From positions 1 through 41,323 of the forward strand of contig DASPIL010000044.1 in the NCBI GenBank assembly GCA_035629175.1: DNA of 41,323 nt, written 5' to 3'. Made by a program: the position numbers and the translations under genes. The notes below the pieces were generated by a model. That model was not told the origin of the DNA and searched no databases. It was given only the letters and a program-made list of their open reading frames with translations. Positions 3,740-36,665 of this stretch are shown here, in pieces; the stretch's first letter is position 1, and every line of letters begins with the position of its first letter. Origin of the DNA: Verrucomicrobiia bacterium (lineage in GTDB: Bacteria; Verrucomicrobiota; Verrucomicrobiia; Limisphaerales; DASXHY01).

Positions 3740-6508
3740 TCAGGGTGCTCGGCTCGTGATGCGAGTCGTGGCGGGCTTTAGGCCTTCACTCCTGGCGGTC
3801 AGAGTGATCCTGCCGGACTGCCCCGGTTTGCCGCGAATGATCGCCAGACAAACGCCGCTGAACGCATTGCGGGCTGGCGATTGAAATGGTTCAAAACTCG
3901 TGGGGTCCCCATTGTCCGTCGCTACAATTTCACCCGGACCCGCGACTTCAAAACGAATGCGGTTGCCTGCACTCGGCGCCATTGATCCGTCTTCGTCGGT
4001 GATCGTTAGTGTGACGAACGATAGATCGCTCCCGTCCGACAGGATTCGGGTGCGGTCCGGTTTTAATGTCAGCTTCGCAGGTGCTCCAACGGTTTTCGTC
4101 TCTGCTGTTGCCCATTTCCTTCCGCCTTTGTAAGTGACCACGCGAAGTTTGCCGGGCTGATACACGACGTCGTCCCAGCGGAATCGATACTCATATTGCC
4201 CCTTCTTTTTGCGGCCTTTTGATTCACCGTTCAGGAAGAGCTCGGCTTCATCGGCAGAAGCAAATACGTGAACGGGCGTCACCTGCCCAAGGCGCTCAGG
4301 CCAGGTCCAATGCGGCAGGATGTGCGCGAAGCGAAGGTCGGGCCGCCAGCGGGATTGATACAGATAAAATCGATCCTTCTTGAATCCCGCGAGGTCAATG
4401 ATGCCGAAATAGGAACTGCGGGCGCCGTAGTAAGGCGTCGGCTCGCCCAGATAATCCCATCCGCTCCAGACAAATTCTCCCGCTACGAACGGATGTTTGT
4501 CCTGCGCGGCAAAGACCTTGTCCGCGGATGAGCCGAAATCGGTGGCGTGCAGTTCGTAGGCGCTCACGTGTTGCTTGCGGGAATCGCCGCCGAGCCCGTT
4601 TTTCACGGGCGCGCTGATCGCATCGGTGACGGGAAACAAATATGTCCCGCGCGAGCTCAGCGCAGCCGCGGTCTCGCTGCTGATGATGACTTTGTCCGGA
4701 AACGCTTCGTGAAAGGCGGTGTATTGCGGCGGTGTGCGGATGCCCCTGAGTTCCGCGTGGGCGGGCGTGTCGCGAATTCCTTCGCCCTGGTAATTCAAGT
4801 TGATGACATCGACCACGCGAGGCAGAGGCATGCTGGGCTTCGCATAATTCATCGCCGTCGTGGTGGGACGCGTGGGATCTTCATCCTTTGCGATGTCGTG
4901 AAGACGCTTTGCAACCGCGGCGCCTTCATCGCCGGTGTACTGCTCGCCGACTTCGTTGCCGATGCTCCACAGTATGACGGATGGATGATTGCGATCACGG
5001 CGGATGAATGCCCGCAAGTCCTGCTCATGCCATTCGGGAAAGATCAGGTGAAAATCCAGCGGGGTTTTCTTGCGCTCCCAACAATCAAAGATTTCGTCAA
5101 CGACCAGGAATCCCATCGCGTCCGTCAACTCGAGCAATTCCGGCGTGGGCGGGTTGTGGCTCATGCGAACCGCATTGCAGCCCAGTTCGCGAAGCATCTC
5201 CAGCTGGCGTTGCGCCGCGCGGTGGTTGTAAGCTGCGCCCAGCGCTCCAAGGTCGTGATGCTGGTTCACACCGCGAATCGGAATGCGCTCGCCGTTCACG
5301 AAGATTCCCTGCTTGGAATCGAAGCGAATCTCACGAATGCCGAAGCGTGTTTCGTAGCTATCGACGAGCCGTCCGTCCACAGCAATCGCAGTTAACGCAG
5401 CGTACCGATTCGGCTGCTGCGACGGTGGCGGGCCCCAGAGTCTGGGATTCCTGAAAACGGCTTTCTGCTCGACGAGAGCACTTTCCCCGGCGGCAATCGG
5501 AACCTGCGCCGGGGCGGCCGTTGCGACGGCTTTTCCCGTGATTTTTCCGTTTTCATCCAGCGCGAAGAATTCCGTTGTTACTTCAACCTTCGACGGTTGC
5601 TTGCCGTTGTTGTCAACCGTGACTTGCAAGTTCACAGTCGCGCGCTCTCGTGATACTTCAGGCGTCGTTACATACGTTCCCCATTGGCCGACGTGGATCG
5701 GATGAGTCGTGGTGAGCCAGACATTCCGATAGAGGCCGCCGCCGGGATACCATCGGGACGAGTCCGATGGATTATCGAGGCGTATCGCGAGTTGGTTTTC
5801 ACCGCCGGGTTTGACGCAGGGCGTGAGGTCGACCCGCCATGACGCGTAGCCATACGGCCAGCCGCCGACGAGGTTCCCGTTCAACCAAACGGTTGCGTAT
5901 GACATGGCGCCGTCGACATCGAGGAAAACAGATTTGCCCGCACTGCTGACGGGAATGTCGAGCTTCTTGCGATACCAAGCGACGCCGGGGCTTGGCAATC
6001 GGCCCATCCCGCCGCCGACGCCGTTGGCGCGATTGGAATTGAACGGGCCCTGGATTGCCCAGTCATGCGGCAGGTTGAGTTTTTGCCATGAGCTATCGTC
6101 GAAGGTCGAACTCGTGTAAGCCACTTGTCGCGGTGGTTCGCCTTGCGGGCGCGCGTGGCGTTTCGATTGATCCTTCAGAAACGCATTTCCCGTTGGGAGA
6201 ATCCAAGGCTTGAGCACGACTTTGTTGGTCGCGGCAATTCTCTCCGCCTCGGTCGGTTGACTGTCAGCCGCCTTGTCATCCTGGCGGTCCGCTACCTCGG
6301 GACGCACGTCATAAATCAAACCTGTAGAATCGCCATCCGGATCACCCATCGTGAACCGCCAGTCTTCGTTGATGGAAATGCGCTGGTGTGGTGCGGCTAC
6401 TTGTCCAGGTGCCGATTCCGCGATTTCTTCCGCAAAGAGGCACACTGCAAGGATGAAGCCGATTTTGAAGGAGCACATGCCGAGCGGAAGGGAGCGGAGG
6501 CTTTTCAT
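3740..6508 (-). CDS. Exported glycoside hydrolase family 2 (beta-galactosidase-like)
   Basis: A 922-residue protein with an N-terminal signal (Lys/Arg start, hydrophobic GFILAVCLF, then SAPGQ). The GH2 order is visible: sugar-binding jelly roll (about 130-270, with LPHDWAI and WYPGGGLYRNVWL), Ig-like domain (about 275-390), then a TIM barrel from about 395 (RGVNQHHDLG, VRMSHNPP). The acid/base is Glu519 in WSIGNEVG and the likely nucleophile is Glu612 in IISSETAAA. After the barrel come a DUF4982-type domain and a C-terminal Ig-like domain, typical of exported Bacteroidetes/Verrucomicrobia GH2 enzymes. An insert at about 60-125 separates the first strand from the jelly roll. Last gene of the five-gene run; 62 bp from the SGNH gene. 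Beta-galactosidase is most likely; galacturonidase or glucuronidase activity cannot be excluded from sequence. Confidence 0.93.
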   Translation of the reverse strand: MKSLRSLPLGMCSFKIGFILAVCLFAEEIAESAPGQVAAPHQRISINEDWRFTMGDPDGDSTGLIYDVRPEVADRQDDKAADSQPTEAERIAATNKVVLKPWILPTGNAFLKDQSKRHARPQGEPPRQVAYTSSTFDDSSWQKLNLPHDWAIQGPFNSNRANGVGGGMGRLPSPGVAWYRKKLDIPVSSAGKSVFLDVDGAMSYATVWLNGNLVGGWPYGYASWRVDLTPCVKPGGENQLAIRLDNPSDSSRWYPGGGLYRNVWLTTTHPIHVGQWGTYVTTPEVSRERATVNLQVTVDNNGKQPSKVEVTTEFFALDENGKITGKAVATAAPAQVPIAAGESALVEQKAVFRNPRLWGPPPSQQPNRYAALTAIAVDGRLVDSYETRFGIREIRFDSKQGIFVNGERIPIRGVNQHHDLGALGAAYNHRAAQRQLEMLRELGCNAVRMSHNPPTPELLELTDAMGFLVVDEIFDCWERKKTPLDFHLIFPEWHEQDLRAFIRRDRNHPSVILWSIGNEVGEQYTGDEGAAVAKRLHDIAKDEDPTRPTTTAMNYAKPSMPLPRVVDVINLNYQGEGIRDTPAHAELRGIRTPPQYTAFHEAFPDKVIISSETAAALSSRGTYLFPVTDAISAPVKNGLGGDSRKQHVSAYELHATDFGSSADKVFAAQDKHPFVAGEFVWSGWDYLGEPTPYYGARSSYFGIIDLAGFKKDRFYLYQSRWRPDLRFAHILPHWTWPERLGQVTPVHVFASADEAELFLNGESKGRKKKGQYEYRFRWDDVVYQPGKLRVVTYKGGRKWATAETKTVGAPAKLTLKPDRTRILSDGSDLSFVTLTITDEDGSMAPSAGNRIRFEVAGPGEIVATDNGDPTSFEPFQSPARNAFSGVCLAIIRGKPGQSGRITLTARSEGLKPATTRITSRAP

Positions 6509-6570
6509 GGTTCAGGTACGCTATTCATGGGCACGATGAGTGAATGCTCCCGTCCGGGCGGTGCTCGCTG

Positions 6571-7815
6571 CTATTCCGTGAACAAATTCAGGTCGATCGC
6601 GTCGGCCAGAGCCTTATAACCCGCCGTATTCAAATGCAGCCAGTCGTTTGCGTTCACACCCGGATAAAACTCTGCCTTGAACTTCGAAGGGTCCGCTGGA
6701 TCGCGGACTGCGGCATCAAGATCAATGACACCATCGAAAACCGTATTGGTCCGGAACCACGCGTTGACGAACTGCCGTTCCTGCTCATGCAGGGTGCTGT
6801 AATAACCGCTTCCCCCAAAGGGTGTGATGGTCGCGCCGTATGCGCGGATATTTCGCGAACGGGCCTTGTTGGCAAACTCAGTGTAGGCGTTGATGAGGTT
6901 TGTCGCGGTCGTCATGCTGCTCGCGCCGCTGCCGATGTCATTCACGCCTTCAAACACAATCAGGTAGCGGACGCCTTTCTGGTCCAGGACGTCGCGGTCG
7001 AAGCGGTTTACCGCGGACGGTCCAAGCCCGCCGAAGATCGCATTGCCGCCAATTCCCATGTTAACAACGCCCACGCCGGAAGTCGGTTCATGGGCCAGCA
7101 AACGTTCGGCGAGCTTGTCGGGCCAGCGATTGTTTCCGTCGTCAGTGGAACCGCGTCCGTCGGTGAGCGAATCTCCCAGCACGACGACTGCCCGATTCGA
7201 GCTGCTCCCCAGGATTTCAAGGCCAGTGATGATGTACCAATGCCTCGTCTTGCTTGCACCGGGCATGCTGGGTGCGGACAGAGAATCGCCGGCCTGGATG
7301 AATGACGTGGTGCGAGAACCAGGGTGGCCGTTGATCGTGGTGGCGGAAATGTCACCAAAGAACGTGCTGATCGCAACGTTGGTGAGAGCTGGCAGAACGA
7401 AATCAACGGGATCCGAATACACGACCTGTCCGCGGGGGACGACTGCGCCGGGAGCGCCGCGGAATGTGAGCGGCGTCTGGGAGTTTGTAATGATGTCGCC
7501 ATTTCCGCCGCTGGCGGTGCTGGGCGCGAGCGCAATGCGCGCGGCATTGATGACCACGGGATCGGTGCCGTATGCATTGGAGAAGCGGACGCGAACCTGC
7601 GTGCCGCCGATGCTCACACGAACAAACTGTCGAAGCGTGCTGTGGGCCAGCGGCACTGGCGGGAGATTTCCAGGTTCAGTGAGTTGCGGGGCGGTTGCCC
7701 ACGTCGTTACCCATCGGCCATCCGCCGCGCCTGATTGATTTAGGGCGGCCACCAACGCGACAAGCGTGGCCGCTGATTTCAAAACGTTGAACTTGGACGA
7801 TGCAGGGGAGCGCAT
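6571..7815 (-). CDS. Exported SGNH/GDSL hydrolase (probable carbohydrate esterase)
   Basis: A 414-residue protein with a signal peptide (AATLVALVAAL). The N-terminal half (about 33-200) starts WVTTWATAP and is a beta-rich domain usual for this subgroup. The SGNH hydrolase domain has block I GDSLTDG with nucleophile Ser216, block II Gly in NMGIGGN, block III Asn292 in EGVNDIG, and block V with Asp391 and His394 (DWLHLNTAGY). The full catalytic set is therefore present. Such enzymes commonly remove acetyl groups from plant polysaccharides. Here it sits between GH127 and GH2 genes (gaps 77 and 62 bp), which suggests deacetylation of the same substrate before or during cleavage. A lipase or other esterase role is less likely from context. 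The substrate is inferred. Confidence 0.9.
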   Translation of the reverse strand: MRSPASSKFNVLKSAATLVALVAALNQSGAADGRWVTTWATAPQLTEPGNLPPVPLAHSTLRQFVRVSIGGTQVRVRFSNAYGTDPVVINAARIALAPSTASGGNGDIITNSQTPLTFRGAPGAVVPRGQVVYSDPVDFVLPALTNVAISTFFGDISATTINGHPGSRTTSFIQAGDSLSAPSMPGASKTRHWYIITGLEILGSSSNRAVVVLGDSLTDGRGSTDDGNNRWPDKLAERLLAHEPTSGVGVVNMGIGGNAIFGGLGPSAVNRFDRDVLDQKGVRYLIVFEGVNDIGSGASSMTTATNLINAYTEFANKARSRNIRAYGATITPFGGSGYYSTLHEQERQFVNAWFRTNTVFDGVIDLDAAVRDPADPSKFKAEFYPGVNANDWLHLNTAGYKALADAIDLNLFTE

Positions 7816-7892
7816 GGTTTGATGGTGATTTAGGCAGGCCGTTGTTTCTTAGAACGAACACGAAGAACCCGCAGTACGTTGGAAAGGCCGGT

Positions 7893-10316
7893 TCACTCGG
7901 AATCTCCCTTCATCAGTCGCACGTCGTACACAGGCGGCACGCGTGTGCCGGGTCGCGCTGCGAATTTGATGGTGACGCGGCCATCGGCGGCGCGGGAAAG
8001 GAGCGCGGGCGGAATGGAATAACGTTGCTCAACGGATTGAGCGGACCGCTGAGAGGGCGTTTGGATGGCCGTCAGCGGTTCGCCGTTGGCCAGCACTTCG
8101 AACGCGCGGTTCGTATCGCCGCTCCCGTAAGTGACCTCCAATTGCACATTCTTTTCGCCGCGCGGGTTGAGCGTGTATTGAAACCATTCGCCGCGCCGCC
8201 AGCGGCGATTGTTGCGCAATCCCGTGTCGGTCCTTTCGCCTGCAAAATCGTGTTCCACTTCGGGCTGCTGTTCGCCGACCGCGACACGATCCAGAGTGTT
8301 TGCCTCGCGCGCGGCTCGGGCCCGTTCCTCGGCAGCGAGCTGTTCGCGCCGCGCAGCCAGTTGCTGCTTCGTGGTTAATTGCCAGTACATCTGGTAGCGC
8401 GCGTCGTGCAGCCGGAAGAACGGGATGAGCGGAAGGCCGCCGGGCGCCGGCGGCTCAACGATATCGACGAGTTTGAATCGAAGCTCCTTTGCGGCGGGAA
8501 CGGGTTTCACATGCTGTGGAACCTCACGCGCGCTTGCCAGCAGAACGGGTGCGCGATCGAGCGGAATGAGCGGTCCCGATGCCACGTGACCCATGCGGCT
8601 GTCGTTCGCAACAAGGCCTGCGAGATCGTTGGTGCCCGAAGGAGAGGCCAGCACGATTGGCCCGTGGAGAATCGCAGCCCAATCGGATCCGTCGGGGAGA
8701 CGTTCCACTGTGGTGCGCATGGGGAGCTCGATCTCGACACGATCCCCATCGCTCCAGACGCGCCGCAGTTCGAAATAGGAGGATGGCGTTGAACGAACCG
8801 TGACGGGCTTGCCGTTCACGCGCACCGCGAATTCGCCTTCCGCGACCCAACCAGGGTGTCGCAGGTGAAGCGAGAACTCGGACGATTCGCGAAGCTTCAG
8901 CGCGAGTGTGGTGCGTGGTTGATCCGGAAAGCCCGTTTCCTGGCGCAGCGTCAGCCCGAGGTTCGTGGCCGTGATCTCGGACGGGATGAACAGATTCACG
9001 TAAAGGCCGTTGGTGGAATCCGCGTAGATGAACGCGCCATATTTCCCGGGATTCTCAATGCCACTGCCGACGCAGCACCAAAACCCTTTGTCCGGATGCG
9101 AATAGACGCGGTAGTGCTGTGGGCGAATCGGGGTGAAGTAAACGAAGCCGGGCCGATCGGGATGGATCGAGGCAAGAATATGGTTGTAAAGCGCGCGCTC
9201 GTAAAAGTCCGTGTAGCGCGCGGCGGGTTCGGTCGCGAAGAGCTGCTCGGTGAGGCGGAGCATGTTGTAAGTGTTGCAGGTCTCGGGCCCTTCGCGATGT
9301 TCCAGCATGCCGCTGAAATCTTTGGTGTCATTGAAGTGTTCCGAAACGCTGTTGCCGCCAAATGCGAGACTTCGCTTGGTCGCCACGTTGTCCCAGAAAA
9401 AGCGCGCGCCGGCATTCGCCTTGCGATCGTCCATCAACGTGGCGATCCGTGCCAATCCTATGACCTTTGGAATTTGCGTGTTGGCGTGCAGGCCCGTGAG
9501 CCGGTCCTCCTGGCGTTGCAACGGTTCAAGCACAGCCTGATGCGAGAAGCGCCGGGCAGCGCGAAGGAATTTTTCATCTCCCGTGATTGCATGGATGTCG
9601 GCCAGCACCTCGTTCATTCCGCCGTGCTCAGCGCGCAGCATGTCCTGCATTTGTTCGTCGCTCAACTTGGAGATCAGTTGCTCGCACCATTCGCCATAAC
9701 GCACGAGAACTTTGCGCGCGGTCTCGTTGCCTGCAACGACGTAAGCGTCGCGGAGCCCGGCGAAGGTCTTGTGCAGGTTATACCACGGAACCCACTTGCC
9801 GTTCAGGCCGAAGCCATTGGCCTGCAGGCGGCCGTTCGCGATGTCGTTCCAAATCGCGCGGCCGCCAGGGACTCCGCCGATGTAACCATCAGCACTGTGT
9901 TGCTGGCAGCGGTCGAGCTCAGCGACCATGTATTCCAGGCGGCGTTGCAGTTCGCGGCCGGGAGCATCCGCGCCTGATGCGATCATTGTGGAAAGAGCGG
10001 AAAGGTAGTGGCCAGCTGTGTGGCCGCCGAGGCCGCTGCTTTCCCAGTTTCCGTAGGGAGGCGACTTCGGTTCAAGACCCGCCTCGCGGAAGAACGGCGC
10101 AAGGAGCCGGTCGGGATCCATCGCAAGCAGGTAAGCGCGATTGGCGTTCACCGCTGCTGCAAACGGTCCCTCGTCGAGAAGGCGCACTGACGAAAGCGGC
10201 GTCAGCCGTGCAGGAGTCTTCGGCTCAACGGCAAGCGGGGCGCCAATGGCGGTTTGGGCCAGGAATGCCAGCGTCGAAGCGGACCAGAGCAGATCTTTCA
10301 ATGGGTGCAGTCGCAT
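7893..10316 (-). CDS. Exported GH127-type beta-L-arabinofuranosidase
   Basis: An 807-residue protein with a signal peptide (LLWSASTLAFLAQTAIGA). It is a member of the former DUF1680 group. Family marks are LGGHTAGHYLSAL (about 96-108), WYNLHKTFAGLRDAY, HGGMNEVLAD, and the zinc/catalytic set: Glu326 (SEHFND), Glu345 and Cys347 (GPETCNTYNM), and Cys414-Cys415 (FWCCVGSG). In characterised GH127 enzymes the equivalent cysteines and glutamate bind zinc, one cysteine is the nucleophile and a Glu is the acid/base; all have counterparts here. A C-terminal all-beta region follows (about 620-807), as in longer GH127/GH146 relatives. The gene lies 21 bp after the GH43 gene. The expected reaction is release of terminal beta-L-arabinofuranose from plant glycans or hydroxyproline-rich glycoproteins. 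Confidence 0.92.
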   Translation of the reverse strand: MRLHPLKDLLWSASTLAFLAQTAIGAPLAVEPKTPARLTPLSSVRLLDEGPFAAAVNANRAYLLAMDPDRLLAPFFREAGLEPKSPPYGNWESSGLGGHTAGHYLSALSTMIASGADAPGRELQRRLEYMVAELDRCQQHSADGYIGGVPGGRAIWNDIANGRLQANGFGLNGKWVPWYNLHKTFAGLRDAYVVAGNETARKVLVRYGEWCEQLISKLSDEQMQDMLRAEHGGMNEVLADIHAITGDEKFLRAARRFSHQAVLEPLQRQEDRLTGLHANTQIPKVIGLARIATLMDDRKANAGARFFWDNVATKRSLAFGGNSVSEHFNDTKDFSGMLEHREGPETCNTYNMLRLTEQLFATEPAARYTDFYERALYNHILASIHPDRPGFVYFTPIRPQHYRVYSHPDKGFWCCVGSGIENPGKYGAFIYADSTNGLYVNLFIPSEITATNLGLTLRQETGFPDQPRTTLALKLRESSEFSLHLRHPGWVAEGEFAVRVNGKPVTVRSTPSSYFELRRVWSDGDRVEIELPMRTTVERLPDGSDWAAILHGPIVLASPSGTNDLAGLVANDSRMGHVASGPLIPLDRAPVLLASAREVPQHVKPVPAAKELRFKLVDIVEPPAPGGLPLIPFFRLHDARYQMYWQLTTKQQLAARREQLAAEERARAAREANTLDRVAVGEQQPEVEHDFAGERTDTGLRNNRRWRRGEWFQYTLNPRGEKNVQLEVTYGSGDTNRAFEVLANGEPLTAIQTPSQRSAQSVEQRYSIPPALLSRAADGRVTIKFAARPGTRVPPVYDVRLMKGDSE

Positions 10317-10337
10317 AACGGGTCCACGAATAACGCA

Positions 10338-11729
10338 TTATTCGAACTTCCAATAGTCCATATTCAACAGCGGTTTTTCGCCGCCGACGAACCTGAGGCA
10401 GAGATCGTGGACACCGCTTGCCTCGGAGACTTCGCACGAAACGGTTTTCCAAGCCTGCGCACCGCCCGTGTTCCCGACCTTGCAGGTGCCGACGAGTTTT
10501 CCGTCTGGGCTTCCCAGGCGCAACTCGATGGTTGCGGCCTCATCTGCGCTCGCTACTTGCGCGCTGAACTTGCGGGCGCCTTGTGCAAAATCGACACCGG
10601 CCACCTTCACCCAATCGCCGTTGTGAAGATCGGCCAGTTGCATGCCTCCCGCCGGGCAGGGTTCGGTTTCAACGCCGTGCTGCGCGAAAAACGTTTCCGC
10701 TTCGAAGCGCGAAAAAGGATTCACGCGGCCCACCTGGTTCACGCCATTGGTTGTATACTTCACCTTCTGGATCGTGTTGTCGGGATTATGGAACAACTCC
10801 TCGATGGCGAGATTGCGGCGAAATCCCGCGGGGATTCCTGCCTGACGCGCGACGATACGGTTGTGGTAAACGTGGTACCATTGGCCCTTGAATTCAAAGT
10901 TCGCGGCGTGGTGATTGTTGTTGTTGAGCGGCGGCTGATCTGAAACCACCCCGCCGTAAACAAATCCTGTCGTCGGATTATCGCTGGTCAGGTAATCGAA
11001 ACGCATCTGCGCCCTGGGTGTTGTGGAGTAGGAGAAGTAGTAAATGCCGTTTCGCTTGTGCACCCACGCGGCTTCGAAAAAGTTCGTGGCGCTCATCTTC
11101 ATGACCTCGCCATCGAGGCTGATCATGTCCCGCTTCAATTTTGCTATGCGGACGTTGTGGTCGCCGTTGCCGCCGAAATACAGATACGCCTGTCCGTCGT
11201 CGTCGATGAATACGCCTGGATCGAACAGCCACATGTTGGTTGCGGGTTGAACGCCGGGCGTGCGGGAATTGATGAGATGCGTGCCCAGGGGATCGGTGAA
11301 CGGTCCGATCGGGGTGGGCGCAGTGGCAACGCCGATGTTGGCGCCGCCGTTCCCGAAGTAGAGAAAGAATTTTCCGTCGCGTTCAATCGCCGCGGGCGCC
11401 CACGTCTTCTTCGCCCACTTCGTGCTGTCCGCCGCGCGAAATACCGACCCGTGATCGGTCCAGTTCTTCATGTCGCTGCTCGATACGCAGATCACATTCG
11501 GAATGTTATAGCTGCCTTCGACAGGGCTTTCGTCGTCGTTGGAGCAGTAGATGTAGACGCGATTGCTTGTGACGAGCGAGGTTGGATCCGCCAGATATCG
11601 ATGCGAAACGATCGGGTAATCGGCGACAACGCTGGGTACAAGCCCGAGCAATGCGATGGACGAAACGATTCGGGTGAAATGGAAATTCTTCATGCGTGAG
11701 GTTGAAATTGAGGAGGGCAGGGACATCAT
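10338..11729 (-). CDS. Exported GH43 enzyme with C-terminal CBM6-like module
   Basis: A 463-residue protein; the signal peptide is MKNFHF followed by IVSSIALLGLVPSVVA. A five-bladed GH43 propeller spans about 38-330. The catalytic triad is visible: Asp48 (LADPTS), Asp170 (WLFDPGVF) and Glu219 (FFEAAWV). Residues about 340-463 form a CBM6-like carbohydrate-binding module opening with SRFEAETF and ending NMDYWKFE. The ATG at 11729 overlaps the stop of the upstream GloVer gene in an ATGA arrangement, which favours translational coupling; an internal ATG at 11693 would give a shorter, equally good signal peptide. Alpha-L-arabinofuranosidase or beta-xylosidase activity is usual for this family. 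The GH127 neighbour favours an arabinose-containing substrate. Confidence 0.91.
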   Translation of the reverse strand: MMSLPSSISTSRMKNFHFTRIVSSIALLGLVPSVVADYPIVSHRYLADPTSLVTSNRVYIYCSNDDESPVEGSYNIPNVICVSSSDMKNWTDHGSVFRAADSTKWAKKTWAPAAIERDGKFFLYFGNGGANIGVATAPTPIGPFTDPLGTHLINSRTPGVQPATNMWLFDPGVFIDDDGQAYLYFGGNGDHNVRIAKLKRDMISLDGEVMKMSATNFFEAAWVHKRNGIYYFSYSTTPRAQMRFDYLTSDNPTTGFVYGGVVSDQPPLNNNNHHAANFEFKGQWYHVYHNRIVARQAGIPAGFRRNLAIEELFHNPDNTIQKVKYTTNGVNQVGRVNPFSRFEAETFFAQHGVETEPCPAGGMQLADLHNGDWVKVAGVDFAQGARKFSAQVASADEAATIELRLGSPDGKLVGTCKVGNTGGAQAWKTVSCEVSEASGVHDLCLRFVGGEKPLLNMDYWKFE

Positions 11730-13828
11730 TGTGTAAAGGAACGATAAAAACGAACGGCGCCGTCGTTTGTCTCCGCAAAGTCCCAGGCACCGTCCGCATT
11801 GGCCACGTTCGTCGAAACGTTTTGCCAGGTGACAGGAGGATTCAAACTGGTGGTGGATTGAATCACATTTGTGGAATCGGCATCGCCGGTGAAGTGTACG
11901 GTGAACGTTCCGTTTGTCTGCAGCATCACGTTCGTTATGACAGCAGGATTTGCCGCCAACGGAATCCTGAACACAGTGCCGCTGCCGCCCGGGCCGCCGC
12001 TGAAAGCCGTGCCAAACAACGCACTGCCTGCACGCACCACTGGCGCTACTGGAAAGGCTCCGTGTGCATTCGTGCCATTGGACGACACCGCTGCAAAGGC
12101 GTGGAGTTTCGTAAACTGCGTCGAGTTCAAGTGAAAGCTGAAAATCGTGCCGGCTCCGCCTGGGCCACCGAGCGGCGCCGTTCCATATAGAACGTTGCCG
12201 GAGAGCGTCAATCCCGCGCCCGGAGACGCGCCCCCGGAGTTCGTTCGGCTTTCAGGATCCAGTGCAGAAAAATGATGCAACACGGTGAAGTCGTTTCCAT
12301 TCGTCTGCATCGAGAAGAGAGTGCCGCGCCCGCCGTGTCCTCCACTGAACGTGGTGCCGTAGAGTGTTCCGTCGGAGAGAACCAGCCGTCCGCAGGGCAT
12401 GGCGCCGTCGATGTTGGTCAGTGTCGCCGGGTCAGGCGCTGAAAAGCCATGGAGTGTTGTAAAATCGGCGCCGTTCGTGCGGATGGAAAAAACAGTTCCA
12501 CTTCCGCCCGGCCCTCCGGCGGCAGTCGTGCCGTATAGAACCCCGCCATCCGCGATCAATCCGCCCGCCGGGATTGCTCCGTCCGTGTTCGTGCCTGACT
12601 GCGCATCCAGGCCGCTGAAGTTGCGCAGCACTGAAAATCCGGTTCCATTTGTCGCAACCGAAAAGATCGTTCCATTTGCCGCTGCGCCGCCAGCGGTTGC
12701 CGTTCCATAGAACCTCCCGCCGGCCTCGACCAACGCACTGGACGGGCTTGCGCCGCCAAAGTTCGTCGCGGTGTGCGGATCGATGGTTGCAAAGTGGCGC
12801 AGGACGGAAACGCTGCCGTTGGTTTCCATTCGGAATACTGTGCCTGCGCCGTTGTTGCCGCCTGCGAGACTTGTTCCGAAGAGTGCGTTTCCTGAAATCC
12901 CGAGAGCGGCCTGCGAATGGCTGGCGTCAGGCGCCGCTGCGAACGACCGAACAGCAACCATGTTCGAGCCATCGGTGCGCATCTGAAAGACTGTGCCAGC
13001 ACCGTTGACGCCGCCGTTCAAGGTGGTGCCATACACACGATCATCCACCACGATGACTGCCGCCGCTGGGTTGGCTCCTTCGGCATTGCTGCCGTTCGCG
13101 GCCGGGCTGAATCGATGCAGTGCGATTCCATCCGGGCCGTTGAAGGTGTTTGTCATTGGCGGCGGGTTGGATGCGGTTCCGCTATCCAGGTCGGCAACGG
13201 TGAAGGAGGCACTTGCATTTCCGAACGCGAATTTGTCGAGGTCCAGGCCGTTTTCGCGCGCGCCAATCTGGAACGTTTGGGTGAGGCTTCCCGCGCCAAC
13301 AGTAAAACCGGCGTGGCTGGTGAACTGGGACAGGTTGATCCACTTCCACACGCCATTTCCCACCGATCCGCCGCCCGTGACGACTTGCGCGTCGTTGTTG
13401 AACCCTGCACCTGCGAGGCCGTTTACGAGGATCCAGTCAAAGTTCGATGTGGGCGATTTGCTGCCGAAGCTGGAAGCCAAAAACATGCTGTCGTCGTTGA
13501 ACGCGCCGAATCCGGTTCTGAGCCGTGCGTAGAGGTGGTAGAGGCCTGGCTCGGGGAATGTGACGGTGTAACTTGCCACGCGGGCGGCGGTGCCGGGTTG
13601 GTTGCCGGCTCCATCTGTTGCGACGGTAATATAGGTGGGCGTGCCGGAATTGTTCAGGGTCCAATCCGCGCCGAGCGTCCCCGATTCAGACTCAAAAGAT
13701 GCAAGCGCGGCGCGAGTTGTCGTTGGGAAACAGCAAAGGAGAAGCGCGGTTATGATGGGTAGCGAATGAGCACTCGGCAGAGACCTCGTAGTCACGGCGG
13801 TACAGAGTGTCGGTGCGCTGAGCTTCAT
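11726..13828 (-). CDS. Secreted GloVer-repeat protein with N-terminal carbohydrate-binding-like domain
   Basis: From ATG 13828 the protein has 700 residues and a signal peptide (LPIITALLLCCFPTTTRA). The frame stays open to 13942, but that extension is charged and lies upstream of the signal, so the shorter start is preferred. After the signal comes a jelly-roll-like domain beginning FESESGTLG and containing LYHLYARLRTGFG, resembling CBM35/CBM6 modules. About seven copies of a 50-60-residue GloVer repeat (TIGR03803 type) follow, each of the form LHxFS...DGA.P...L...LYGTT..GG.GG.GTVF. These are predicted to build a beta-propeller. The C-terminal segment (TSLNPPVTW to RFYRSF) matches a module common at the ends of verrucomicrobial secreted proteins. 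First gene of the run; it overlaps the GH43 gene by 4 bp. No catalytic residues were recognised; a glycan-binding or scaffold role is inferred. Confidence 0.88.
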   Translation of the reverse strand: MKLSAPTLCTAVTTRSLPSAHSLPIITALLLCCFPTTTRAALASFESESGTLGADWTLNNSGTPTYITVATDGAGNQPGTAARVASYTVTFPEPGLYHLYARLRTGFGAFNDDSMFLASSFGSKSPTSNFDWILVNGLAGAGFNNDAQVVTGGGSVGNGVWKWINLSQFTSHAGFTVGAGSLTQTFQIGARENGLDLDKFAFGNASASFTVADLDSGTASNPPPMTNTFNGPDGIALHRFSPAANGSNAEGANPAAAVIVVDDRVYGTTLNGGVNGAGTVFQMRTDGSNMVAVRSFAAAPDASHSQAALGISGNALFGTSLAGGNNGAGTVFRMETNGSVSVLRHFATIDPHTATNFGGASPSSALVEAGGRFYGTATAGGAAANGTIFSVATNGTGFSVLRNFSGLDAQSGTNTDGAIPAGGLIADGGVLYGTTAAGGPGGSGTVFSIRTNGADFTTLHGFSAPDPATLTNIDGAMPCGRLVLSDGTLYGTTFSGGHGGRGTLFSMQTNGNDFTVLHHFSALDPESRTNSGGASPGAGLTLSGNVLYGTAPLGGPGGAGTIFSFHLNSTQFTKLHAFAAVSSNGTNAHGAFPVAPVVRAGSALFGTAFSGGPGGSGTVFRIPLAANPAVITNVMLQTNGTFTVHFTGDADSTNVIQSTTSLNPPVTWQNVSTNVANADGAWDFAETNDGAVRFYRSFTQ

Positions 13829-13948
13829 GCGAAGGGGGAAACTAGCGGAATCGCGTCGCTGCCAGCCATCCGACATACGTCGTATGCGAGGAGGGGCGGG
13901 GGTAATCTGATTTCGTCCCTGCTCATCGTGTATCAAAGTCAAACGCGC

Positions 13949-19481: not shown

Positions 19482-20843
19482 ATGGCACAGGGCATTGGTT
19501 CATATCTTTTTTCGGCAGACACATTCGCCTTTATCGGCCAGCTGCATTCATTCGACCACCACGAGGACTTCGTGCCTCGATCCACTCGTCCATGCCAACC
19601 GAACGCCGATACGTGTCGAACGTTGATTCTGCCGAAGCTTTATGCGGTCGGCTGGTCGGACGACCAGATCAGTGAGCAACGCAGTTTCACGGATGGTCGC
19701 ATCGTGGTTCACGGCAATCGGGCTGTGCGGAAAAAAGGAAAGCGAGCTGATTACATCCTTCGCAAATCTCAGGATCTCTGGCTGGCTGTCGTTGAAGTGA
19801 AGCCTGAAAACGAGTCCGCTGCCACCGGATTGCAGCAGGCCAAGGACTACGCCGAAATTCTCAAACTGAAATTTGCCTACGCCAGCAACGGCCGGGAGAT
19901 CATCGAATTCGATTTCACCACTGGCTTGGAGCGAACGCGTCCGGAGTTCCCAGCGCCCGAAGAACTTTGGGATCGCCTCAGTGCCTGTGAAGGTCTAGCC
20001 GACGAAACGGCAGCGTTGCCTCTTCTCACTCCACCGAACCTCACGACAGGCAAGGAGCCGCGGTATTATCAGCAGATTGCAATCAATCGCGCGGTGCAGG
20101 CCATCATCCAAGGAGAGAAGCGCGTTTTTCTCACCATGGCCACCGGCACGGGCAAAACGGTTGTAGCGTTCCAAATCTGCTGGAAGCTCTGGTCTTCACG
20201 TTGGAATCGAAGCTTGTCGCCCCATACAGATTCCCTCTCCTCCTCGTCCGAGGAGAGGGCCAGGGAGAGGAGTCGAAAGTTCTACTTTGACGGCGGCCAG
20301 GTCGAGATCGCGGCGGACTTGGTTTATGAGCTGGACGCGGACGGAAAACAGCTACGTGTGGTAAAGCTAACGGAATACACCGGTGACAAGGTGCGTTCCA
20401 TCTGTCCCAGCACGGTTCAACTGCGCGCCGGCTGGTGTGATCCAAAACAACGCGCAGAAATCATCGCTCAACTGGCTGAACTTGGGATTGATTTCAAGAC
20501 TCTGGCCCTGCAAGCCGGGAAACCTGATGCCGACCCGTTCCACCTGCTCCCTCATCTGGCTTACAACGCTCCGATCTTGACCCGCCGTCCGCGCGCTGAC
20601 CGGGTGAAGAAGCAACAGGCGGCCATGTTCAACTACCTGCAACCCGAGGCGGGGGAGATTTTGAATGAGCTCCTTGAGAAGTATGCGGCAGATGGAGAAT
20701 TGCAGTTCGTGCTGCCGGATGTTTTGAAAGTGCCGCCGATCTCGCGGCATGGTTCAGTCGGTGAAATCGTGGAGGTGTTCGGTGGCCCGAATGAACTGCG
20801 GATGGCGGTGAATCAACTTCAAACCCTGCTTTACGCTGAATGA
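19482..20843 (+). pseudogene. Decayed type I restriction enzyme R subunit (hsdR), helicase core deleted
   Basis: The 453-residue open frame keeps both ends of an EcoEI-type HsdR. The N-terminal nuclease region (ADTCRTLILPKLY, DDQISEQRSFTDGRIV, VVEVKPE) leads into the Walker A ATGTGKT and FQICWKLWSSRWNR. The frame then passes through a palindromic repeat (20233-20272) and resumes at KFYFDGGQVEIAADL in the C-terminal domain, ending LQTLLYAE. All helicase motifs after Walker A are missing, probably a few hundred residues. The 5' end is also damaged: ATG 19592 followed by CCAACCGAA would continue into ADTCRT if one base at about 19604 were absent, giving the usual MxxEADTCR start. The apparent upstream start at 19482 is therefore probably artificial. 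No hsdM or hsdS is present. It cannot translocate DNA or restrict. Confidence 0.85.
20233..20272 (+). repeat. Single A-type palindrome at the hsdR deletion scar
   Basis: A 10-bp perfect stem CCCTCTCCTC / GAGGAGAGGG with loop CTCGTCC, followed by the CCAGGGAGAGGAG tail that also follows other A modules. The loop-proximal sequence differs from the common CCGCTC/GAGCGG form, but the outer stem is conserved. It is the only copy found inside a reading frame, and it lies exactly where the HsdR helicase core is missing. Short similar sequences GAATCGAAG (about 20203) and GAGTCGAAAG (about 20270) flank the scar. Confidence 0.82.
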
Positions 20844-32228: not shown

Positions 32229-35200
32229 TTACTCCCAAAATGGTTGGATATCGTCCCAGGCGAGTTGCCAGCCATTGCCGTAGGTGCCGGAATACGCGCG
32301 CCAAAGACGAGGTTGGCTCGGATCGGGCAGAGTGTTCGGAGGTGGCGGGGGCGGGGGTGTGCCGCGACCAAAGACATGCACCTGTGCGCCGTCTCCGGTG
32401 CACACAACAGCCGGGCCGGAACTGAATACCCCACTGCCGATCGCCTTCCATTCGGCCGCCGCGTAAGGCCCGCCAAGGCTGACGAGCGCGGTGTGCCAAT
32501 AGCGGTTATCCATTCCGCGGCCGCCCACGTGGACGACGTTGCCATCAGCAGAAGCGGCCGCAGCGGGGGCCGAGCTGAACGTTCCCGAATGCATGGCCGC
32601 CCATCCCGTCCAGTTCGTTCCGGCGTTCGACGAATAATTCCACCAGATTCGATTGTCCGTTCCCCGGCCAAATACGAAAACCTTCTGGCCATCACCGGAA
32701 CATGCGGCTGCCGGTGCCGAGTTGAATGCGCCGAAGGGGATCGTCGAAAAGGGAGTCCAATGACTGGCGCCGCTGACGAGTCGCGTATGCCGGTAGCTTC
32801 CGTCCTGATGCCGGGCCACCACATGCAACAATTGTGCGTTGGCCGAGCCTGCGACGGCGGGAGCGGAAGCGAATTCCAAAGTGACGATGCCGCCTGAATG
32901 CGACAACGGCGACCAACTGCTGAAGTTCGTGCCACCGTTCAAAGAGCGCGCCCGCCAGATTTTCTTGTCCATGCCGCGTGCGAAGAGATCAATCGTGCTG
33001 CCCGCGATGGAAACCGTCGCTGCCGGGCTGGAGCGAAAGATACCGGAGGCGAGCGCCGGGTCATACCCGAAGAACCAGGTGTTGCCCGCGTTCGGTGAAT
33101 GGATGCGCTCCAGGGATCCTGGCAATTTCCGATCGAAGACGGAGAAGATATCCAGACGATTGCCAGAGTCATCCATCACGGCGGCACAGCGAGCAGGGTC
33201 GAGATCGGCATTGAAGATGTACGGGAGCAGTTGAACGGACGGAAAGTTGGACGGAACATCCGGTGTTCGCACCTGGGTCATACTTGCAGTGAGACCGAAC
33301 CAGACGGCTTCGGCATCGTGCCATTCGGGAGGATCGTCATCGCCCCATCCCATGTTGCACTTGAACCAGCGGGTCAGCTCAACCTGCTCGCAATCTTCGT
33401 AGCGTTCGACGCGCTTGTATCCGTATGCAAGCGCGTAGTGCGGGGTAATCCCGCTCCAGATTCCGACGACCCCTGGACGATTATTCTTGATGCCATTTGC
33501 CACCGCCTTGCCGCCCTCCTCCCAATCGGTCCCGCCGACCAAAAAGAAATCGTTCCAGTGTGCCTCTGCATGGCATTCCACAAAGTAAGGTCCAAATTCA
33601 TTCATGGGCGCCGGCCAGGGAAAACCGCCGAGCGAGTTGGCTACGCGAAAGATGTATTCGTAAAATGCAGAGGCCATTTGATCCGGGGCCGTGGCGCCCT
33701 GGCCACTCACGCAAAACGTGTTGCACAATCCGTGCAGATCATCGTACACGGCGCGAACGAGGGATTCATTCTCCCACGATGTTTTCGGAGCATCGCTGTT
33801 CTTAAGCGAATCCGGGTTGAACCGAAAGACGGCGGCATTTCCGCGGCCGGAGTTAAGTTTGTAAAACGCGCTCGGCACGCCGTTGACGTCCCACCAGCCG
33901 AGGAGCATGGCGAGAGCGGTTGGGCCGCATCCGACTGACGGACACCACTTGTTGTTGTCTTTGAGTTGATGAAACAGTCGTTGATCGCCATCCCAGCCTG
34001 TCCCGGCGTACCACGTATCCGTGTCCAAACTGGGACATCCGGCCGCGGCGCCAAACGCAGCGGGCGTCGCTGACGTGACAACGAGTGTGTAATTCTGCGC
34101 GGCGCCGGCGGCGGTGACTACGCGCACGATCGCACTGCCCTCGGCGAGACCGGTTGCGGAAAATCCGCCGCTGCCGGCCAGCAACTGTAATTGCGCGATG
34201 GGTGGCTCGCCGTCTTCAGACAATAGGCTGACCCGTTTTAGAGGTGTGCTTTGAAGGAAGACCGTCGATTCCCCTTCGCCAACACTCAGGCGCGGCAACC
34301 GTCCGCCCCGCAGCAGACTCCAGCGGCCGCTGGCGATCTGACTCCGATTCAACCGATAACTGGCGACCAAGGGATTGGTGAGGAAATTTTGTTTCATGGC
34401 CGGGTACAGATAGAGCGGAGCCGGTTCGAGCGGAGGGAGCGCAGTCAGCACTTTTTGGCCGGTAGTCGAGTCAAAGGAGAAGTGACCGCTCAAATCCGGG
34501 CGCGGCGAATTGTCCGCGAGGGCGCCGGGAGGCGTTCCATATTGCCCCAACAAGTGACCCCCGGCGTCTTCAACCGACCAATACACTGCGTTGAACCGCA
34601 GGATTTTTGCGGGCGCCCCCGAACCGACGCGTTTGAGCACGCGCTCGGTTTTGGTTGAACCGCGGGTGGCAAATTCCACGATCGGTGCGTCGTTGTCTGT
34701 CAGGGAGATCAAAATGTAACCCTTGGACGGGCCGTTTGGCTGTCCGTTCGGCACCACCTTGAGCTCCGCGTAGGCGGGTTGTGTGCCATTCGCATGCAAG
34801 GGATCGAACACCAGCGTGGCGGCAGGGGCGAGATCGACGTCGCTCCAGTCTGCCGCGTCACTTCCGGGCGGTGTCCCGGAATCCGGACCAAAGATCTGCA
34901 AATACTGGCGCGCGGCCGCAACGGTCTGTGTGGGGAGATTCGAAATCGGAATGCCATTTGTTCCGGGTAGGGGAATGAGCACCGGCGAATAGATGCTTCG
35001 CGCAAACCTGTAGAATCGATTGCCATTCGCGCCATCAGCGTCAAAGAACCGCAAGTCGCCAAACTCATCCGCCTGAATCTCACCCAGCCACTCCCAGCCG
35101 AGCGGGTCGGTGAGATCGTCGGTTGCTTCGACATTGTAGCGCTCGGCGGCCCGGGTAGAGGAGAGAAGGTTGAACCCGGTTTGGCCCCCCTCAAATTCAG

Positions 35201-36665
35201 GTTGCAGGGATGTGAGCAGAACCGGAGGCGTGGGCGGCAGTTCCACTCCGACGCGCGTCAAGGTGACGTCATTGCCATCGCCGCCCTGATAACTGATGCG
35301 GTATTTCACGCCGTCCGCCGAAATCGCGGCGCCCTCGGGAAGACCCGCGAAGTAGCCGTAAACCGGGTCGGTGTTGTCATTGGAAATCAGCGGGAACTCG
35401 GTCCCGGCGGCGGGGGTAAAACTCACGCTGATATCCAGAACGGGCTGCTGCAAGGCGACACTGCCAATGACGTTGACGCGGCTGTAGATCGAGTGGGATT
35501 GAAGCCGCGCGTGGAAGCGTGTTGAACCTGAGAGATTCAATCCGGCGCTTGTGAGCGGATCGCTCAACCCCAGGAGGTGTGAGCCGGGCGCAAAGACACC
35601 ATCGATCATGACCACCGGACCCACCGCCGGCACAGGAGCTCCGACGACTCCGGGCGTTCGCGTCCCGCCAACCAGGGCCGAGCCCGGCACACGGATCCAG
35701 GTGAACGGGGCTGAGCGGTTGAAATAGAGCTCGCCTGCTTCCACATACGTCGCTCCGGAATAAGTGCTCACCGCCCCTGCTCCCGGGATCAAGCTGTAGT
35801 TCAGGCTCAACACCCCCTGACCGCGTTTGAGGATCGTTCCACCAGCGCCATGAATTGGGCCAGAGAATGCGCGGCTCGTGCCTGTGGGTTGGTCGAGGAT
35901 CAACAAGCCATTGCCCAGCTGTAGGACGCCGGTGCCCGAGACTGCTCCCAACGATTCATGATTTCCGTTGAGATCGAACGCCGGCAGCGCGGCGAGGCCC
36001 GATGCATGCATGACGACTTCAGCGGTATCGGGAATCTGGTTTGAAGACGTGATTTGCACCGTGGCCGCGGGATGGATTTCGACATTCCCGCCGACCGCGT
36101 TAATTCCAGCGGGCTTGGCGAAAATCGTGACGCCGCCGGTGGCGAAGAATTGGGGGATTGTGTTTGAGTTCAGACCTTCCAACCGGAGGGTGCCGGTTCC
36201 AGACTTGGTGATCGATCCCGGTCCGAGGATTGCGCTTTGAATCCGGAACTCAGCCGTTCCGTTTATCGCCAGGTTGGCGATGCCGTTTTCGACTTTAAGC
36301 ACCAGCGAAGAGAGGACGAGGTTGTTGGAGCCCGAACACGTGAGTGTTGCGCCAGCGGCAAGCGTGAGCTGGGCTTGCTCGGTGAGAGCGCTCAATCGAT
36401 AGCCGTGACCGGACAGCGTGAGGCTCGTCACAACCAGACCGGGAATGTCGTTAATGGCATCCTGAGTTGCCGGCGTATCGGGAGGAAAGATCAGAATGAG
36501 ATCCGTCTCGCCGGACAACGGCGGAGAAGTTGTCCAATTGGCCGGGTTGCTCCAAAAATCGTCACGACCATTTCCGGACCAGGTATGGATTCCCGCCATT
36601 AGTGACAAGGAAAACCATAGTGAGCCTGACAATACGGCAATTTGAAACAGACGCATGGTATTCAT
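32229..36665 (-). CDS. Exported 1478-residue mosaic: strand repeats, papain-like peptidase, PLL-like lectin propeller
   Basis: After a signal peptide (AVLSGSLWFSLSLMAG) come autotransporter-type strand repeats (about 25-470; GSITKSGTGTLRLEG, ILKRGQGVLSLNY). A verrucomicrobial linker module follows (ERYNVEATDDL to NRFYRFAR), then a beta-rich region (about 570-880). Residues about 885-1130 resemble a papain-like C39-type peptidase: Cys913 in GCGPTALAM, His1076 in PHYALAYGY, and an Asn/Asp region FKCNMGWGDD. Residues about 1190-1460 are repeats such as FGRGTDNRIWWNYSSNAGTNW and FSSAPAAAASADGN, resembling PLL/PHL-type lectin propellers. There is no C-terminal barrel or sorting tail, so the secretion route is unclear. 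It may be a lectin-targeted peptidase. Isolated gene. Confidence 0.85.
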   Translation of the reverse strand: MNTMRLFQIAVLSGSLWFSLSLMAGIHTWSGNGRDDFWSNPANWTTSPPLSGETDLILIFPPDTPATQDAINDIPGLVVTSLTLSGHGYRLSALTEQAQLTLAAGATLTCSGSNNLVLSSLVLKVENGIANLAINGTAEFRIQSAILGPGSITKSGTGTLRLEGLNSNTIPQFFATGGVTIFAKPAGINAVGGNVEIHPAATVQITSSNQIPDTAEVVMHASGLAALPAFDLNGNHESLGAVSGTGVLQLGNGLLILDQPTGTSRAFSGPIHGAGGTILKRGQGVLSLNYSLIPGAGAVSTYSGATYVEAGELYFNRSAPFTWIRVPGSALVGGTRTPGVVGAPVPAVGPVVMIDGVFAPGSHLLGLSDPLTSAGLNLSGSTRFHARLQSHSIYSRVNVIGSVALQQPVLDISVSFTPAAGTEFPLISNDNTDPVYGYFAGLPEGAAISADGVKYRISYQGGDGNDVTLTRVGVELPPTPPVLLTSLQPEFEGGQTGFNLLSSTRAAERYNVEATDDLTDPLGWEWLGEIQADEFGDLRFFDADGANGNRFYRFARSIYSPVLIPLPGTNGIPISNLPTQTVAAARQYLQIFGPDSGTPPGSDAADWSDVDLAPAATLVFDPLHANGTQPAYAELKVVPNGQPNGPSKGYILISLTDNDAPIVEFATRGSTKTERVLKRVGSGAPAKILRFNAVYWSVEDAGGHLLGQYGTPPGALADNSPRPDLSGHFSFDSTTGQKVLTALPPLEPAPLYLYPAMKQNFLTNPLVASYRLNRSQIASGRWSLLRGGRLPRLSVGEGESTVFLQSTPLKRVSLLSEDGEPPIAQLQLLAGSGGFSATGLAEGSAIVRVVTAAGAAQNYTLVVTSATPAAFGAAAGCPSLDTDTWYAGTGWDGDQRLFHQLKDNNKWCPSVGCGPTALAMLLGWWDVNGVPSAFYKLNSGRGNAAVFRFNPDSLKNSDAPKTSWENESLVRAVYDDLHGLCNTFCVSGQGATAPDQMASAFYEYIFRVANSLGGFPWPAPMNEFGPYFVECHAEAHWNDFFLVGGTDWEEGGKAVANGIKNNRPGVVGIWSGITPHYALAYGYKRVERYEDCEQVELTRWFKCNMGWGDDDPPEWHDAEAVWFGLTASMTQVRTPDVPSNFPSVQLLPYIFNADLDPARCAAVMDDSGNRLDIFSVFDRKLPGSLERIHSPNAGNTWFFGYDPALASGIFRSSPAATVSIAGSTIDLFARGMDKKIWRARSLNGGTNFSSWSPLSHSGGIVTLEFASAPAVAGSANAQLLHVVARHQDGSYRHTRLVSGASHWTPFSTIPFGAFNSAPAAACSGDGQKVFVFGRGTDNRIWWNYSSNAGTNWTGWAAMHSGTFSSAPAAAASADGNVVHVGGRGMDNRYWHTALVSLGGPYAAAEWKAIGSGVFSSGPAVVCTGDGAQVHVFGRGTPPPPPPPNTLPDPSQPRLWRAYSGTYGNGWQLAWDDIQPFWE

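What the first reader, a model, noticed from the sequence alone, without database searches (positions are those of the whole stretch)
32229..36665. Strand-repeat / papain-like peptidase / PLL-like lectin mosaic
One exported chain joins autotransporter-type strand repeats, a Cys913-His1076 papain-like domain and a C-terminal propeller resembling PLL/PHL lectins, without a beta-barrel or known sorting tail. A peptidase delivered to glycans by its own lectin would suit glycoprotein attack, competition or host interaction. I know of no named family with this order.
Basis: partly seen in the sequence, partly recalled or inferred. Interest (0 to 1): 0.65.

Follow-up and report, generated by a model that had tools for sequence, protein, structure and literature searches.

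The report
Secreted peptidase with built-in lectin propeller
A Verrucomicrobia-type bacterium encodes a secreted protein that joins a papain-like protein-cutting enzyme, a distant and unnamed relative of the streptopain family, to a sugar-binding propeller like the Photorhabdus PLL lectins, and the same join occurs in two other bacterial families, so it is a real shared design rather than an accident.

Summary
The ORF at 32229-36665 (-) encodes 1478 aa with an N-terminal signal sequence. The C-terminal propeller is related to Photorhabdus PHL/PLL lectins (5mxe, E=1e-39). Cys913 and His1076 are correctly placed and, with Gln900 and Asn1104, invariant across 11 relatives.

Three corrections. (1) The catalytic domain is closer to C10 (streptopain) than to C39: profile-profile score 78.6 versus at most 19.3 for 60 shuffles; C39_2 gives 38.2, over 31 columns only. 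No Pfam or NCBIfam model covers it. (2) It belongs to an unmodelled secreted-peptidase family found in 21 of 320 genomes of the order, mostly as stand-alone 590-740 aa precursors. (3) The strand-repeat N-terminus is the exchangeable part: relatives carry LamG pairs, DUF5122/Ig arrays or nothing. Peptidase plus propeller is shared by three genomes of three families.

The propeller shows six blade repeats, not PLL's seven; four keep the fucose-site Trp pair. Other PLL-like propellers in this order sit on peptidoglycan hydrolases, which suggests bacterial surfaces as targets.

AlphaFold models were too poor to use, so folds and function rest on sequence. Best reading: a self-targeting secreted cysteine peptidase. 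New variant of a known kind.

The parts
32229..36665 (-). Whole gene, 1478 aa secreted precursor (P0001)
36594..36665 (-). Sec-type signal sequence, residues 1-24 (MNTMRLFQIAVLSGSLWFSLSLMA|G), no lipobox Cys
   Evidence: sequence reading; hydrophobic stretch at residues 6-22; no signal-peptide predictor was available
35241..36593 (-). Strand-repeat (PATR-like) region, residues about 25-475; the lineage-specific N-terminal part
   Evidence: weak PATR and TIGR02601; 34% identical to a PATR protein of the same genome
34998..35216 (-). Small domain ending in FYRF, residues about 484-556, shared with the N-termini of the stand-alone relatives
   Evidence: FYRL motif before the pro region in relatives
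34431..34943 (-). Putative pro region, residues about 575-745, with the AYxELKV...GYILISLT...PIVEFATRG motif
   Evidence: conserved in relatives; suggestive match to C10 propeptides, score 29.4 versus shuffled maximum 17.8 but HH probability only 12%
34071..34304 (-). Small beta domain, residues about 788-865, resembling T2SS-T3SS_pil_N
   Evidence: weak Pfam hits in relatives (best 0.069) and a weak profile match to RcpA (E=0.14)
33276..34043 (-). Papain-like (C10-like) catalytic domain, residues about 875-1130
33966..33968 (-). Gln900, presumed oxyanion-hole Gln, invariant
   Evidence: Q21
33927..33929 (-). Cys913, presumed nucleophile in GCGPTA, invariant
   Evidence: (C34)
33438..33440 (-). 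His1076, presumed general base in HYALAYGY, invariant
   Evidence: (H197)
33354..33356 (-). Asn1104 in KCNMGWG, invariant, aligned with the Asn of the C10 HxNxGWG motif
   Evidence: (N225)
32232..33188 (-). PLL/PHL-type beta-propeller, residues about 1160-1478, six blade repeats starting near 1158, 1212, 1265, 1314, 1363 and 1414; Trp pairs 1237/1251, 1341/1355, 1390/1406, 1455/1470

Best explanation
A secreted, self-targeting cysteine peptidase of a previously unmodelled, C10 (streptopain)-like family. It leaves the cell by its signal peptide as a zymogen. The pro region in front of the catalytic domain holds it inactive until cleaved. The mature Cys913/His1076 peptidase is then held on fucosylated or O-methylated surface glycans by its C-terminal PLL-type propeller, where it cuts nearby protein or peptide, most likely on other microbes or on microbial surface polymers. 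Shown at sequence level: the domain order, catalytic residues, lectin homology and recurrence of the peptidase-propeller join. Inferred: papain-like fold, zymogen activation, glycan binding and the target.
For: Lectin homology E=1e-39 to PHL. Gln-Cys-His-Asn invariant in 11 diverse relatives. Profile homology to C10 over 198 columns including all catalytic motifs; local score 78.6 versus shuffled maximum 19.3 and reversed 11.1. The family recurs in 21 of 320 genomes of the order with signal and pro regions kept. The same peptidase-propeller join occurs in G068 and G539, which are other families; with the window and L005 they form a 100/100 clade. Four of six blades keep the Trp pair that stacks fucose in PLL3 (residues from PMC12203525). 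Other PLL-like propellers in this order sit on GH25, Amidase_2 and M23-type enzymes.
Against: AlphaFold gave pLDDT 42 (with the catalytic part near 28) and 33, so neither fold is confirmed structurally. No Pfam, NCBIfam or PDB family matches the catalytic domain directly. Pro-region similarity to C10 is only suggestive. Two blades have lost the Trp pair and only six repeats are seen. No activity, binding or substrate data exist, and one relative in the same clade (L005) does without the propeller.
Confidence: 0.6

Rival explanations
1. The catalytic domain is a peptidase, but the propeller does not bind glycans: it is a structural or dimerising cap, or binds protein, as propellers often do.
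For: Six repeats instead of seven, two blades without the Trp pair, a polyproline loop inside the last blade, and only 37% identity between the window's propeller and the other two fused ones.
Against: Four Trp pairs kept in the window, and pairs in blades 2 and 4 kept in all three fusions; strong similarity to true lectins.
Confidence: 0.18
2. The papain-like domain cuts or cross-links something other than ordinary protein: a cell-wall peptide (as CHAP and NlpC do), an acyl bond, or a transpeptidation.
For: PLL-like propellers of this order sit on peptidoglycan hydrolases; papain-like folds often serve as cell-wall amidases (general knowledge).
Against: Profile similarity is to C10 endopeptidases with a suggestive C10-like pro region; no CHAP or NlpC match in Pfam.
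Confidence: 0.14
3. It is a C39-like (bacteriocin-leader or C39_2) peptidase, as first proposed.
For: Five of 11 relatives touch Peptidase_C39_2 at E<=1, best 0.017; local match over the Cys motif, score 38.2 versus shuffled maximum 22.8.
Against: The match covers 31 columns only and global alignment fails; C10 scores twice as high and covers the His-Asn part.
Confidence: 0.08

Closest known systems
PLL/PHL seven-bladed propeller lectins of Photorhabdus (PDB 5mxe, 6rfz, 6t96, 5c9o)
   Same: Blade sequence (SAPxxxxxDGxxxVFGRGTDNxxW...W), E=1e-39, Trp pair of the hydrophobic sugar site in four blades
   Different: Photorhabdus PLLs are stand-alone seven-bladed proteins; here the propeller is a C-terminal module of a peptidase and shows six repeats
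Peptidase family C10 (streptopain; PF01640)
   Same: YxQ...CP...GCxxTAxA Cys motif, His motif and NxGWG motif align over the whole domain; suggestive pro-region motif
   Different: Not recognised by PF01640 in the window's genome; inserted region between Cys and His, extra pil_N-like domain before the catalytic part, lectin behind it
Peptidase_C39_2 (PF13529)
   Same: Cys-helix motif
   Different: Below cut-off, no support over the His part
PATR / TIGR02601 autotransporter-type strand repeats
   Same: N-terminal region resembles a PATR protein of the same genome
   Different: Below cut-offs, no beta-barrel, and not conserved among relatives
PLL-like propellers on GH25, Amidase_2 and M23-type enzymes in the same order (L070, L071, L073, L075, L076, L078)
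   Same: Secreted hydrolase plus PLL-like repeats
   Different: Different enzymes; propellers only distantly similar (at most 45 bits with the fused-propeller profile, against 437-640 within the peptidase fusions)

Membership tests
PLL/PHL lectins | Sequence homology to solved members | tested here: met
   E=1e-39 to 3e-23
PLL/PHL lectins | Seven blades (W motifs) | tested here: not met
   six repeats in the window, G068 and G539; a cryptic seventh is not excluded because the model failed
PLL/PHL lectins | Trp pair of the hydrophobic sugar site | tested here: met
   4 of 6 blades in the window
PLL/PHL lectins | Binding of fucose or O-methylated sugars | not testable with these tools
   needs a binding assay
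Peptidase C10 (streptopain) | Score above the PF01640 cut-off | tested here: not met
   no match in the window protein or its genome
Peptidase C10 (streptopain) | Profile homology over the catalytic domain with Cys and His aligned | tested here: met
   98.2% probability in global mode, local score 78.6 versus shuffled maximum 19.3
Peptidase C10 (streptopain) | N-terminal C10-type pro-domain | tested here: inconclusive
   score 29.4 versus maximum 17.8 of shuffles, probability 12%
Peptidase C10 (streptopain) | Thiol protease activity | not testable with these tools
   needs an assay
Peptidase C39 / C39_2 | Score above the PF13529 cut-off | tested here: not met
   13.6 bits versus 24; none in the window's genome
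Autotransporter (type V) | C-terminal beta-barrel | tested here: not met
   none; the C-terminus is the propeller
PATR repeat proteins | Score above the PF12951 cut-off | tested here: not met
   19 versus 27 bits; related protein of the same genome passes

The most novel reading that the evidence does not exclude
A distinct peptidase family of clan CA, largely confined to Verrucomicrobiota and allies, in which one branch captured a six-bladed PLL-type lectin, giving a natural glycan-addressed protease with exchangeable N-termini; together with the PLL-bearing cell-wall hydrolases it would be a general glycan-addressing scheme of this order.
Probability: 0.4. Interest if true: 0.65.

Novelty: new variant of a known kind. 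Interest (0 to 1): 0.5.

Why it matters
PLL lectins are known as free lectins of insect pathogens. Finding the same propeller as a conserved aiming module on a secreted protease, and PLL-like ones on cell-wall hydrolases in the same bacterial order, suggests that PLL-type propellers also serve as glycan-addressing domains of enzymes. The catalytic family has no model in Pfam or NCBIfam, so these proteins are at present unnamed by those libraries; a profile built from the alignments here would name them.

Tried and rejected
C39-like affinity: tested and found weaker than C10. Direct PDB match of the catalytic domain: none; the antibody and endonuclease G hits are chance. Structure prediction: only three sequences could be used for the peptidase module (pLDDT 42) and one for the propeller (pLDDT 33), so no fold search was run on them. 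Viral contigs: no relative of peptidase or propeller. Plasmids: one weak propeller match on an Embleya record. A further copy of the peptidase in the window's genome: the weak hit at C51 lies in a protein that looks unrelated and was set aside as chance. A propeller remnant behind the gene in L005: none in the 0.9 kb held. Other propellers of the fused kind in the phylum: none in 287 further genomes. Literature: no paper found that describes this fusion among the open-access papers held.

Full report
WHAT IS THERE. The ORF at 32229-36665 on the minus strand encodes 1478 aa. The chain begins with a Sec-type signal sequence without a lipobox (sequence reading) and ends in propeller sequence with no recognised sorting tail. 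The gene's base composition resembles the window's (60.0 versus 58.5% G+C; third-position G+C 66-69% in all four parts), so no part looks recently imported.

LECTIN PART. Residues 1160-1478 match Photorhabdus PHL and PLL lectins: 5mxe E=1e-39, 6rfz 6e-27, 6t96 3e-25, 5c9o 3e-23. A blade profile finds six repeats in the window and in the two other fused propellers; the last repeat is split by a loop which in the window is polyproline. Photorhabdus PLLs are seven-bladed with sugar sites between blades, and two Trp 14 residues apart (W251/W265 in PLL3) stack the fucose (PMC12203525; PMC6943638). That Trp pair is kept in four of six window blades (1237/1251, 1341/1355, 1390/1406, 1455/1470) and lost in the first and third. 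Whether the fold has six blades or hides a seventh could not be settled, because the model had pLDDT 33.

PEPTIDASE PART. No Pfam or NCBIfam family passes its cut-off. Relatives were found by sequence: two in named genome records, then 10 of 146 relatives including the window's own genome, 21 of 320 genomes of the same order, and 4 genomes besides the window's own among 387 drawn from the phylum, two of them strong. In an alignment of 11 rows (relatives 28-59% identical to the window) Gln900, Cys908, Cys913, Cys985, His1076 and Asn1104 are invariant. Compared as profiles, the family aligns with C10 peptidases of the same phylum over 198 columns, with the YxQ..CP..GCxxTAxA, His and NxGWG motifs in register; the local score is 78.6 against a mean of 12.6 and maximum of 19.3 for 60 column shuffles and 11.1 for the reversed profile. 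C39_2 members from the same order give 38.2 over 31 columns (shuffled maximum 22.8) and no global alignment. The E-values of such single comparisons are not calibrated; the shuffles are the control. The region before the catalytic domain carries a GYxLxSLTxxDxPVxEFxTxG motif resembling C10 propeptides (29.4 against a maximum of 17.8; probability 12%): suggestive, not proven. The AlphaFold model of this module had pLDDT 42, near 28 in the catalytic domain, and was not used.

STRAND-REPEAT PART. PATR and TIGR02601 match below their cut-offs, but the region is 34% identical to a 1287-aa protein of the same genome that passes PATR clearly. This part is not conserved in the family: L005 has two LamG domains and an Ig-like stretch, G068 has about 2,500 residues that include DUF5122 and Ig domains, and most relatives have only the small FYRL domain and pro region.

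IS THE JOIN REAL? Yes. G068 (3434 aa) carries peptidase then propeller in one open frame. G539 carries the same order, though its frame is broken in several places, which may be assembly error. The three genomes belong to three families (f1, f14, f16). Their propellers score 437-640 bits with the fused-propeller profile (two of the three built that profile) and the next best in the order 45. In a tree of the peptidase the three plus L005, which lacks a propeller, form a 100/100 clade. The tree needs two changes for the propeller; one gain followed by one loss is a simple account, and a single origin is not ruled out. L005 comes from a contig of the same length as that of genome G138 (9,424 bases), so L005 and L009 are counted once.

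HOW IT PROBABLY WORKS. Export by the signal peptide, latency through the pro region, activation by cleavage, then thiol proteolysis near the glycans held by the propeller. Only domain order, residues and homology are shown; the rest is inference from C10 and PLL biology (streptopain is released as a zymogen and uses Cys47/His195; PMC9455582; the same paper says that streptopain lacks the Asn of papain's triad, so the role of Asn1104 is left open). A hint on targets: other PLL-like propellers in this order sit on GH25 lysozymes (L071, L076; L078 a partial match just below the cut-off), an Amidase_2 (L075) and M23-type domains (L070, L073; just below the Pfam cut-off), so surfaces of other bacteria are at least as likely as host glycoproteins. 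The gene lies between leucyl-tRNA synthetase and an M16 peptidase in a window with GH2, GH43 and GH127 enzymes; among the neighbours scanned nothing looks like an immunity or delivery gene.

VERDICT. Observation confirmed, interpretation partly supported. It is a new variant of a known kind: a C10-like secreted cysteine peptidase, in a family without a model in the libraries searched, fused to a PLL-type propeller.

Noticed in passing
L070:169-1983, L071:253-2121, L073:1405-3150, L075:694-2520, L076:1225-3138, L078:1-1167: In the same order PLL-like propeller repeats sit on peptidoglycan-hydrolase domains (GH25, Amidase_2, M23-type), and in L078 DUF346 repeats follow a partial GH25; L077 and L082 look similar with NlpC- or CHAP-like N-termini by eye.
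   Followed up: partly
window 19482-20843 (+): A 453-aa protein joins the N-terminal part of a type I restriction R subunit to the EcoEI R C-terminal domain, with only 52 of 164 positions of the ResIII motor domain matched: probably an internally deleted or remodelled HsdR.
   Followed up: no
window 3740-13942 (-): A row of minus-strand genes with GH2, GH127 (beta-L-arabinofuranosidase) and GH43-CBM6 enzymes plus a 738-aa ORF without Pfam match: likely an arabinan or hemicellulose locus.
   Followed up: no
L084:3827-10571: The G539 relative of the 3434-aa protein is broken into several frames; pseudogene or assembly error could not be told apart.
   Followed up: no
L027:3582-13883: A 3434-aa ORF with DUF5122 propeller repeats, Ig domains and many ELWxTDGTxxGT repeats in front of the peptidase and PLL propeller.
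   Followed up: partly
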